Notes under the pieces: model-generated
The model's database searches: none
The model's input: the letters and a program-made list of their open reading frames with translations, nothing else
Told to the model about the DNA's origin: nothing
Shown here: piece after piece, positions 25,730 to 33,653 of the stretch
Numbering within the stretch: position 1 is the first letter of the stretch
Layout of the letters: the number at the start of each line of letters is the position of its first letter
Translations under genes and position numbers: made by a program
Assembly: GCA_034231615.1 (NCBI GenBank)
Contig: CM067299.1
Coordinates: 15,730,834 to 15,794,833 of the forward strand
Source of the DNA: Meghimatium bilineatum
Lineage: Eukaryota; Mollusca; Gastropoda; Stylommatophora; Philomycidae
Direction of reading: 5' to 3'
DNA length: 64,000 bases

Positions 25730-26070
25730 ATGTCTGAACTTCAGGTTTGTGTTGTAGATTCTGTCTGAACTGCATGTTGTTTGGTTTATGTCTGATCTAC
25801 AGGTTTGTGTTGTAGATTCTGTCTGACCTGCATGTTGTGTGGTTTATGTCGGAGCTACGTTATTGGTCTCTGTTCTGTATTTATGTCTGTATTTATGTCT
25901 TTATTTATGTTCTGCGTGACTTATTGGTTTGTGTCTGTTTTATGTCTACCTGTTGAAGTTCTTTCTGACCTAACTGTGTGTTTCCATGATCTATCTGCCC
26001 TAAGGATTTGTGTCTGTGTTATATCTGACCTACCGGTTTGTGTCTGTGTTATATCTGACCTACCGGTTTG
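25730..26070. repeat. 30-bp repeat spanning the stop codon and 3' UTR of the bHLH gene
   Basis: Two identical 30-bp units lie at 26011-26040 and 26041-26070. Increasingly degraded units (tgtctg...cagg/ccgg...tttg) extend to about 25730. The first unit is coding: it supplies the end of His229 through the stop. Confidence 0.8.
25900..25905 (-). terminator. Candidate polyadenylation signal AATAAA for the bHLH gene
   Basis: TTTATT on the plus strand is AATAAA on the minus strand, about 145 nt after the stop codon. The site lies in degenerate repeat sequence, so it may be chance; other AT-rich hexamers are nearby. Confidence 0.35.
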
Positions 26071-26269
26071 TGTCTGGCAGCACTGAGACAGAATGTACAC
26101 ACAGGTTTTGGCATATCCAGAGACTGGTGTCCCCTGATGATGGCTTGATGTTTTATACATGGTTGCTCAGAGCACTCTGCTCCAACCATCAGAACTGTAC
26201 TAAGATGTGCTATATAGCTGGCAGCAAGACGTAGGGTTTCAATCTTTGATAACTTTCGGTCTGCTGGTT
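26049..26269 (-). CDS. SCX/TCF15-like: bHLH gene exon 2: rest of loop, helix 2, Cys-containing tail, stop
   Basis: The exon has no internal ATG in its early part and is too short to show as a long ORF, so it is easy to miss. The reading frame from 26269 gives the second base of Glu163 onward, then [15 protein letters not shown], helix 2, the QPC and CTFC motifs, and TAA at 26051-26049. The only long ORF over this stretch (26160 to 25921, minus) is a different frame and is not real. The last seven residues (HKPVGQI) and the stop come from a 30-bp tandem repeat that continues into the 3' UTR. Confidence 0.95.
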
Positions 26270-32200: not shown

Positions 32201-33653
32201 TGACTTGATCATCTGTGTTTTCTGATGGCAGGTGATTGGTACATCTGGTTGGTCTTCGGCAAGCACATTCCTTAGCCAGTTGGTCTGCTTTTTCATTTCC
32301 TGGTATTCCACAGTGAGAGTATCTACTGCATAGTTACCCTATACTGGTAAGACAATTCATTAAGTAGTTTTTGTTAGTCTGTTAGATTTCCAGACTGTAG
32401 AGCTTGAAGCACTAAATTTGCGTCTGTCAGGAATACCACGGACTGTGTGCCATGGTTGGAGTTCAGCAGTTTTTCAGTTGTCACCCTAATTGCCTGGATT
32501 TCTGCATCATAATTATTACAGAATTTCCCTGTTGGTGTTCTGGTCTTGTCTCTAGATTTGTGTGGATATCCTATATACACCTGCACCTCCATTCCTCACT
32601 GCATTCTGTGCTGACCCATCTGGGTCATATACTATGACCCGTATGTCTTGTGGATATTCCAGGAAATTGAGGGTGACTGTCCTTCGTTGCACACTGTTCT
32701 CATACATAACGTAAGTTCTCACCGTAATTTAGTTGTATATATAAAGAGTGACTCACATGTAGGTCTAAACTGAACCATCTGATCTTATATAACTAGCCTC
32801 ACCTGTAGGCTTCGTCTTCTTCTTCAGCATTCATTCTCTAACGCTTGCTGGATCTCTCTTTTAGCAGGATCATTGTCCTACTAGATTTCCAGCAGGATGT
32901 AATCCAGAGAACGGATATGCGTTGTGTTGGAAATGCGTTTTATTTGCGCCAATGGCCCGATACATCCGTCTTCGGCGAAACCTCTAGGTCTAAACTTGAA
33001 TAACCTGATCCTATATAACTAGACTCACTTGTAGATATAAGCGTGAATCACCTGTACTGTTTAACTGGACTCACCTGTAGACATAAATGTGATACCACTG
33101 TACTGTTTAACTAGACTCACCTGTAGACATAAACGTGAATCACCTGTACTTTTTAACTTGACTCACCTGTAGGTATAAGAGTCCTGAGAGTTATAAAAGC
33201 TGTATTAACACTGTGGGTACGATCCCTTTCACGAGCATTTGCAGAACATCTAGGCTTGGGATAGTGTCCGGCTGTGTCAGACTGGTCCCTGTCGTCCCAT
33301 ATTTCTGCAGCAGAACCAACGTTGCTCATATTGTATTTTTGTTCTAGTAAATTTTGCCTTTGTTGAGACTGTCGTTGACTGAAGTTTTTACTGTATTTAC
33401 TCGTCTTATCGGTGTTACTACTAACACAGTTGCTACTCAAAGAAATTCTTCTATCTTTATCACCGTTTGAAACGTGACCCTCGCCGCTGTTTCTGCTGTT
33501 TAGGTTGATAAACTCTGTGTGTTCTGGCGTTGATAAGGATTCAAACGTGGACGAACAACCCTTGTTTCCTAAGATGTGAACTTTATTGTCATAACGAGAT
33601 TTCGTTTTTTTCCTAAATTTTGTGTCTGGGCACTGATTTCGGTCGTCACCCAT
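26049..33653 (-). CDS. SCX/TCF15-like: Scleraxis/paraxis-family bHLH transcription factor, two exons: join(33653..33167, 26269..26049)
   Basis: A 235-residue nuclear DNA-binding protein expected to dimerise with an E protein and bind E-boxes (CANNTG); relatives act in mesoderm, tendon and muscle development. The two exons join at a phase-1 GT-AG intron, so G plus AA makes Glu163. The bHLH domain runs from about residue 135 to 190: basic region and helix 1 contain [15 protein letters not shown], the loop reads LIPT-EPADRK, and helix 2 contains [17 protein letters not shown]. After it come QPC (198-200) and CTFCLS (220-225), both conserved C-terminal marks of scleraxis and TCF15. The N-terminal 130 residues are polar, rich in Ser, Asn, Lys and Gln, and not recognisable. 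Length is close to vertebrate SCX and TCF15 (about 200). No in-frame stop lies inside either exon. Scleraxis and paraxis are hard to tell apart here, so the ortholog name is open. The family call is secure. Confidence 0.95.
26461..27232. repeat. Minisatellite, 43-bp unit, about 18 copies (intronic)
   Basis: Unit ctctcaggttgacctatctt plus catatagttagtgcaagatttaa in two parts. Variants (tta/ctc; ataaag/atatag) recur in blocks. It starts about 190 bp upstream of the exon 2 acceptor. Confidence 0.95.
27325..27680. repeat. Minisatellite, 42-bp unit, 8 copies (intronic)
   Basis: Unit gaccgattacatcgacagta plus gaccatcaaataatgtaggtct. As 42 is a multiple of three, it stays open in several frames (plus strand: [14 protein letters not shown]). 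Confidence 0.95.
27760..28085. repeat. Degenerate repeat, about 37-bp unit (intronic)
   Basis: Recurring cataaaataatataaata with cttgtag..t.a..agacac. It grades into the next array. Confidence 0.8.
28085..28265. repeat. Minisatellite, 22-bp unit, 8 copies (intronic)
   Basis: Unit gataaatacttgtaacatcg plus tc. Copies are nearly perfect. Confidence 0.95.
28455..28535 (-). repeat. Dispersed repeat, family E (intronic)
   Basis: The minus strand reads caggatgtagccataaacac ... tagtgatttttcttggcaat, as in the copies at 33725 and 50595. Confidence 0.6.
28741..29212 (+). mobile_element. LINE C-terminal fragment in the intron, antisense to the bHLH gene
   Basis: Frame 28764-28997 reads [32 protein letters not shown], and then a shifted [19 protein letters not shown] tail. 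The end [16 protein letters not shown] matches the fragment ending near 3048. Confidence 0.75.
29215..29545. other. No gene recognised (intron)
   Basis: 29205-29265 is a short acagaacagaac-type simple repeat. The rest shows nothing recognisable. Confidence 0.45.
29546..29703. repeat. Minisatellite, 58-bp unit, 2.7 copies (intronic)
   Basis: Unit gtcatcagcataaacaaata through aaacagctattttactt. Copies are nearly identical. Confidence 0.93.
29705..30560. other. No gene recognised (intron)
   Basis: 30130-30250 on the minus strand weakly resembles a LINE C-terminal basic segment ([19 protein letters not shown]), but the match is too short to call. Confidence 0.35.
30565..30728. repeat. Minisatellite, 42-bp unit, 4 copies (intronic)
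   Basis: Unit cagtttgtggcgaggagatt plus agtgtaatagtccaacagtct. Confidence 0.93.
30740..31145 (-). mobile_element. LINE C-terminal fragment (same family as 11350-12262), intronic
   Basis: The minus strand begins past the RT region with IDAFEM-like and [15 protein letters not shown] words, then [19 protein letters not shown], and closes with a form of AANLRCGD near 30780. Frames are broken. Same orientation as the host gene. Confidence 0.75.
31264..31400. repeat. Dispersed repeat, family G (intronic)
   Basis: Matches 16253-16410: ctgtacgataccac, ttatctgaaacagttc, ctggtgaccatagtcc, gatgaaattcgtatcag. Confidence 0.65.
31485..31565. repeat. Minisatellite, 18-bp unit, 4-5 copies (intronic)
   Basis: Unit gactcactaacggaactt. 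Confidence 0.9.
31848..32715 (-). mobile_element. 5'-truncated, decayed copy of the intact LINE family (intronic)
   Basis: Covers RNase H and the C-terminus. [20 protein letters not shown] and [18 protein letters not shown] match the intact LINE almost residue for residue, as do CTCEQAAQS and the 3' end acatgtttcaagtgaacgaa. Several frame breaks separate the pieces. In the zinc-like tail the second Cys-Gly is Cys-Glu. It interrupts the older CACCTG-containing repeat. Confidence 0.88.
32815..32990 (-). mobile_element. SINE family A copy (intronic)
   Basis: The minus strand runs from accgaagacggatgtatcgg to a gaatgaatgctgaagaagaa end. Inserted in the older CACCTG repeat between the LINE copy and exon 1. 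Confidence 0.82.
33000..33172. repeat. 46-bp minisatellite at the exon 1/intron 1 border, rich in CACCTG E-boxes
   Basis: About four units, each with two half-units of the type actcacctgtag and aatcacctgtac. CACCTG occurs at 33049, 33072, 33118, 33141 and 33164. Degraded outliers of the same unit at 32745-32810 and 31735-31830 suggest an older, longer array later split by LINE and SINE insertions. Confidence 0.85.
33161..33172 (-). promoter_or_regulatory. Splice donor embedded in a 46-bp minisatellite
   Basis: The minus strand reads CTACAGGTGAGT, with the splice after the first G of GGTG. The same 13-base block (gactcacctgtag on the plus strand) recurs exactly at 33114-33126 and 33068-33080, 46 bp apart, giving two decoy donors just inside the intron. 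Confidence 0.85.
33167..33653 (-). CDS. SCX/TCF15-like: bHLH gene exon 1: start codon to mid-loop of the bHLH domain
   Basis: The exon holds 162 codons plus one base. The ATG at 33653-33651 has A at -3 and G at +4. A TAA codon lies directly before it in the same frame, so this is the first possible start in the exon. Residues 135-162 are the basic region and helix 1, with the Glu and Arg residues of the RERDR core that contact an E-box. Reading past the exon end gives only Gly-Glu-Ser-Ser and then a stop, as expected of intron sequence. Mild uncertainty: an upstream noncoding exon cannot be excluded. Confidence 0.95.

What the first reader, a model, noticed from the sequence alone, without database searches (positions are those of the whole stretch)
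26049..33653. Complete two-exon scleraxis/paraxis-like bHLH gene hidden in repeat-rich DNA
Exon 2 is only 221 bp and its frame is masked by a longer ORF in another frame. Joined at consensus splice sites, the exons give an unbroken 235-residue protein with a full bHLH domain plus the family-specific QPC and CTFC tail. The restored Glu at the junction and the exact continuation of the loop make chance agreement implausible.
Basis: partly seen in the sequence, partly recalled or inferred. Interest (0 to 1): 0.92.

Follow-up and report, generated by a model that had tools for sequence, protein, structure and literature searches.

The report
Paraxis-family gene with missed third exon
This stretch of a land-slug chromosome carries a conserved body-building control gene of the paraxis/scleraxis kind; it is an ordinary gene, most likely made of three coding pieces and not two, with a sister copy on another chromosome.

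Summary
The two exons are real: 33653..33167 and 26269.. (minus strand) join into an open frame with a bHLH domain (Pfam HLH 66 bits). A sister gene on another chromosome of the same genome has the same intron at the same phase. Over 120 codons synonymous sites are saturated (pS 0.81) while protein change is small (pN 0.04; 112 of 120 residues equal), so both copies are under purifying selection. In a 25-row tree both group with recalled SCX and TCF15; a 34-row tree did not keep that group. "Complete two-exon" is most likely wrong: conservation ends at CCG|GT in both copies, and a conserved 21-codon exon (13869..13804) lies 12.2 kb downstream, also behind the sister. That gives three coding exons and 252 residues; the reported stop lies in intron 2, in a minisatellite. 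The host matches the published land slug Meghimatium bilineatum, whose order underwent a genome duplication. No RNA evidence was available. An ordinary, well-supported gene with a corrected model.

The parts
33167..33653 (-). coding exon 1 (487 bp, residues 1-162 plus first base of codon 163); ATG at 33653; basic region and helix 1 at 33251..33167
   Evidence: sister exon with MGD start and same donor position
26270..33166 (-). intron 1 (6,897 bp, phase 1, GT-AG), carrying minisatellites and a LINE fragment
   Evidence: LINE fragment 31871-32311, 72% identical to the LINE ORF at 38047
26064..26269 (-). coding exon 2 (206 bp): loop, helix 2, QPC and CTFCLS (26099..26082), ends ...RHKP
   Evidence: 164 of 206 bases equal to the sister exon, differences mostly synonymous
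   Evidence: similarity to the sister ends at CCG|GTA
13870..26063 (-). intron 2 (12,194 bp, phase 0, GT-AG), inferred
13804..13869 (-). coding exon 3 (66 bp with stop TGA): MRPESCMFKDARHSLPIGVRR*
   Evidence: score 96 against null maxima 34-45 in 8 simulations; the tail search of the genome listed 4 places, exons 2 and 3 of the two genes
32991..33172 (.). 46-bp minisatellite whose first unit holds the intron-1 donor; three exact CAGGTGAGT copies 46 bp apart (starting at 33169, 33123, 33077)
25964..26076 (.). 30-bp minisatellite whose first unit holds the exon-2 end, the intron-2 donor and the reported stop; CCGGTAGGT twice, 30 bp apart
13929..14358 (.). minisatellite ending 60 bp upstream of exon 3

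Best explanation
A functional paraxis-family (TCF15/SCX-like) bHLH transcription-factor gene of a land slug, on the minus strand at 33653..13804, with three coding exons and 252 residues; its sister gene on contig C1 reads 256. Shown: open spliced frame, bHLH domain, conserved splice positions, strong purifying selection, one sister copy found. Inferred from the family: the protein pairs with an E-protein (daughterless type), binds E-boxes and helps pattern mesoderm or muscle. Inferred: the two copies stem from the whole-genome duplication of Stylommatophora and differ mainly in their N-terminal halves.
For:: open frame and HLH 66.2 bits; sister gene with same intron-1 position and phase; 120 codons, pS 0.813 vs pN 0.042, Fisher p 4e-45; 112 of 120 residues equal; third exon conserved behind both copies; the genome search with the tail listed no other place; paraxis group 92/97, the two slug genes 100/98; genome duplication in the order; three other bHLH pairs on the same two contigs; brachiopod, annelid and amphioxus paraxis in mesoderm.
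Against: No transcript evidence. The wider 34-row tree did not keep the paraxis rows as one group (12% of 200 bootstrap trees), because Achaete-scute and one other own-genome row fell among them. The exon-2 donor of the window gene (GTAGGT) is not the best consensus. The N-terminal halves share only 35 of 148 aligned columns. In Drosophila the orthologue is reported as neural, not mesodermal. Synteny beyond the bHLH pairs was not tested.
Confidence: 0.93

Rival explanations
1. A complete two-exon gene as reported, ending at the TAA at 26049 inside the minisatellite.
For: Unbroken 235-residue frame. A transcript that keeps intron 2 or uses the second CCG|GTAGGT, 30 bp on, would end exactly there.
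Against: Conservation with the sister ends at CCG|GT, the sister reads a different and longer run after it, and a conserved exon 3 with acceptor, matching phase and shared stop lies downstream of both.
Confidence: 0.05
2. A pseudogene or dead duplicate of the C1 gene.
For: Repeat-rich surroundings; minisatellites touch both donors.
Against: No frame break. Change per non-synonymous site is about one twentieth of that per synonymous site, uncorrected. All four splice sites are GT or AG.
Confidence: 0.02
3. A different Twist-superfamily member (Twist, HAND, MyoR, SCL) that resembles paraxis.
For: bHLH domains are about 62% identical to Twist and HAND; the 34-row tree did not keep the paraxis group.
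Against: 81-83% to recalled TCF15/SCX against at most 62% to the other anchors used. Own-genome Twist, HAND and SCL genes group with their anchors. The CTFCLS tail is present.
Confidence: 0.02

Closest known systems
Vertebrate TCF15 (paraxis) and SCX (scleraxis)
   Same: bHLH block [37 protein letters not shown] and CTFCLS after it (vertebrate letters recalled); one tree group
   Different: Long N-terminus of its own; exon-3 tail shows no clear likeness to the recalled vertebrate tails; the slug pair arose separately from TCF15/SCX (the two slug genes 100/98); vertebrate intron positions were not compared
Spiralian paraxis, e.g. Terebratalia Tt.paraxis (PMC4404124, passages)
   Same: Same family by name; mesodermal larval expression reported there
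Insect Pxs (ant PaPxs, PMC3527142, passages; Drosophila CG33557 named in PMC4404124)
   Same: Paraxis family with an intron inside the bHLH motif
   Different: The ant intron lies 44 nt into the motif (helix 1); here it lies after LRTLIPT, at the helix 1/loop border

Membership tests
Paraxis family (TCF15/SCX) of bHLH factors | bHLH domain | tested here: met
   Pfam HLH 66.2 bits, E 2.3e-18; best PDB hits TWIST1, NEUROD1, TAL1
Paraxis family (TCF15/SCX) of bHLH factors | groups with SCX/TCF15 apart from Twist, HAND, SCL, MyoR, PTF1a/Fer3 | tested here: met
   92/97 in the 25-row tree; not met in the 34-row tree with long branches; anchors recalled
Paraxis family (TCF15/SCX) of bHLH factors | C-terminal CTFCLS motif and QPC | tested here: met
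   present in both slug genes; the family motif itself is recalled, not taken from a call
Paraxis family (TCF15/SCX) of bHLH factors | mesodermal expression, E-protein partner, E-box binding | not testable with these tools
   no RNA or binding data held; literature passages only
   conserved donor and exon 3 in both copies; no RNA test
Pair from the Stylommatophora genome duplication | paralogues on two chromosomes that share other duplicate pairs | tested here: inconclusive

The most novel reading that the evidence does not exclude
Land slugs and snails duplicated paraxis on their own through a whole-genome duplication, in parallel with the vertebrate TCF15/SCX split. They kept the DNA-binding and C-terminal halves nearly frozen in both copies while the N-terminal halves diverged freely, which points to division of regulatory partners between the copies.
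Probability: 0.35. Interest if true: 0.4.

Novelty: new member of a known kind. Interest (0 to 1): 0.2.

Why it matters
It corrects a gene model: a short last exon 12 kb away would be missed by reading a single copy. It also gives a clean duplicate pair for comparing what happens to paraxis after an invertebrate genome duplication with what happened in vertebrates. Beyond that it is a routine conserved developmental gene.

Tried and rejected
Donor-site minisatellites as a special mechanism: both donors of the window gene lie in arrays, but 22% of the window is within arrays of unit 9 bp or more, so two of two is about a 5% event; neither of the two donors of the sister lies in one of the 7 rows that the repeat finder gave for L039. 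Genome-wide, two CAGGTGAGT 25-50 bases apart occur 516+649 = 1165 times against 630+308 = 938 for the pattern read backwards. Many hits fall in the same array, so the difference is not clear evidence of an excess. Rejected as a finding.

Shared intron position with insect paraxis: the ant gene's intron is in helix 1, 44 nt into the motif (PMC3527142, passages), not at the same place.

Exon 3 search: three rows with higher scores than exon 3 (281, 260, 223) all fall in one repeat near window 12070, which matches the C1 region over 904 bp at 89.7% and again over 366 bp at 69%; they were set aside as an interspersed repeat (Pfam named no family for the plus-strand ORF there). A first blastn listing was swamped by simple repeats and redone with filtering.

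Trees: the 34-row tree was rebuilt without 9 rows (ASCL1, MYF5, ATOH1, L007, L027, L029, L030, L034, L038). In one search, 18 of the 22 full own-genome domains printed had been used (not used: L028, L031, L036, L037); itself scanned only the loci L001-L038, not every bHLH match.

One search used a wrong start for the sister gene and gave a nonsense translation; corrected, whose last step (substitution counts) failed on a length error and was redone.

Paper searches for mollusc paraxis/scleraxis: one search found 0, one search found 0, one search listed 3, one search listed 20 of 27 and one search listed 20 of 34; none of the titles shown is about this gene in land snails or slugs. Only the PMC open library was searched. 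A search for splice-donor minisatellites listed 3 papers, none opened.

Full report
Observation. The minus-strand reading is correct: exon 1 33653..33167 (487 bp), donor CAG|GTGAGT; exon 2 from 26269 after TTACCCATATACAG; the join gives 235 codons without a stop, and a TAA stands directly before the ATG in frame. The protein has one Pfam domain, HLH, 66.2 bits, and its best-scoring solved relatives are TWIST1, NEUROD1 and TAL1.

A sister gene. A protein search of the host genome (1.61 Gb, 32 contigs; 46 candidates scored) gave 41 matches at E up to 1. Four are the exons of two genes: the window gene, and a gene on contig C1 (81% identity over residues 148-232; 56% over residues 84-163). The other 37 are 58% identical or less; 36 of them overlap the bHLH part and one weak match (E 0.13) lies in the N-terminal half. 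Read from the DNA, the C1 gene starts with ATG at 84117570 (MGD..., as in the window gene). Its exon 1 ends at CACAG|GTAAGA and its exon 2 begins after TTTCAG at 84121958. Intron 1 therefore sits at the same place and phase in both.

The missed exon. In both genes the match runs to ...AGACAC..ACCG and ends within the next three bases; what follows is GTAGGT in the window gene and GTAAGA in the sister. That suggested a second donor. Acceptor-like AGs downstream of both genes, within 26.1 and 24.8 kb and with an open run of at least 5 codons, were paired in phase 0 (981 by 931 candidates). Setting aside one interspersed repeat that gave three higher rows, the best pair was a 21-residue peptide with a stop at the same point, score 96. 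First-order Markov sequences of the same length gave maxima of 34 to 45 in 8 simulations. The DNA match covers 82 bp, from 14 bp before the exon to 2 bp past the stop (window 13883-13802, C1 84135448-84135529, 76.8%). A genome-wide search with the joined tail listed 4 places, E up to 10: exon 2 and exon 3 of the two genes. The window gene thus reads 252 residues and the sister 256.

Selection. Over the 120 codons from KPRCSAN to the stop, 67.5 differences fall on 83.0 synonymous sites and 11.5 on 277.0 non-synonymous ones (pS 0.813, pN 0.042; Fisher p 4e-45); 112 of 120 residues are equal. In exon 3 alone the numbers are 12.5 on 13.2 against 3.5 on 49.8. The N-terminal halves align above shuffled sequences (score 49 against a shuffled maximum of 15 in 200) but only 35 of 148 columns are identical.

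Family. With 25 rows of the Twist superfamily and NeuroD, the two genes, SCX and TCF15 form one group with support 92/97, and the two slug genes together 100/98. With 34 rows including long-branched Achaete-scute and other domains, the group was not kept (12% of 200 bootstrap trees). The SCX, TCF15, HAND1, HAND2, TCF21, MSC, PTF1A, FERD3L and ATOH1 rows are recalled, not fetched. Identity of the domain to SCX and TCF15 is 48/58 and 47/58, to the best of the other anchors 62%. [quoted passage not shown]

Host and origin of the pair. The 11 contig lengths known to me, of 32 (C1 135.71 Mb, C2 122.72, C5 25.65, C7 76.03, C14 68.08, C15 54.98, C18 44.30, C19 66.95, C22 88.69, C23 87.47, C24 78.64), agree within 0.02 Mb with the published chromosome table of Meghimatium bilineatum, which has 25 chromosomes plus 7 unanchored scaffolds, 1.61 Gb, and tandem repeats over 19.46% (PMC10770140, passages). 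The species belongs to Stylommatophora, an order with a reported genome duplication (PMC12328838, abstract and Results section). In this genome several bHLH families come in pairs. Those on C1 and C2 are paraxis, Twist (L019/L013), NeuroD type (L017/L002) and Fer3 type (L033/L032) (types from the tree). This fits homoeologous chromosomes; I infer the origin and did not test synteny further.

Repeats. Both donors of the window gene lie in the first unit of a minisatellite, and the reported stop is part of the second array. Since 22% of the window is in such arrays and the genome-wide count of donor-like pairs is 1165 against 938 for the backward control, with many hits per array, I treat this as coincidence.

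Function. By family membership, a transcription factor of mesoderm: paraxis is described as mesodermal in a brachiopod, an annelid and amphioxus, while the Drosophila orthologue is reported as neural (PMC4404124, passages). Nothing here tests expression or binding.

Verdict. A real, conserved gene, correctly assigned to family, most likely wrongly called complete; an ordinary find.

Noticed in passing
window 38047-41898 (+): Long single-frame LINE-type ORF with endonuclease, reverse transcriptase and RNase H domains; ORF 31871-32311 in intron 1 matches its C-terminal end at 72% over 127 residues.
   Followed up: partly
window 6390-7100 (-): Fragment of a reverse-transcriptase element (RVT_1 31.9 bits and DUF6451).
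   Followed up: partly
L019/L013, L017/L002, L033/L032 (C1/C2); L024/L004; L008/L016; L030/L031: Several group A bHLH genes of this genome come in closely similar pairs on different contigs, as expected after a genome duplication.
   Followed up: partly
window 32991-33172 and 25964-26076: Two minisatellites whose first units contain a splice donor and the last coding bases of the exon; further exact donor copies 46 and 92 bp downstream in the first, 30 bp downstream in the second.
   Followed up: yes
window 1-64000: 22% of the window lies in tandem arrays of unit 9 bp or more, close to the 19.46% given for the published genome.
   Followed up: yes
window 12252-11356, C1:84140843-84141729: An interspersed repeat present downstream of both genes, 89.7% identical over 904 bp; Pfam named no family for its plus-strand ORF 11763-12245.
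   Followed up: no
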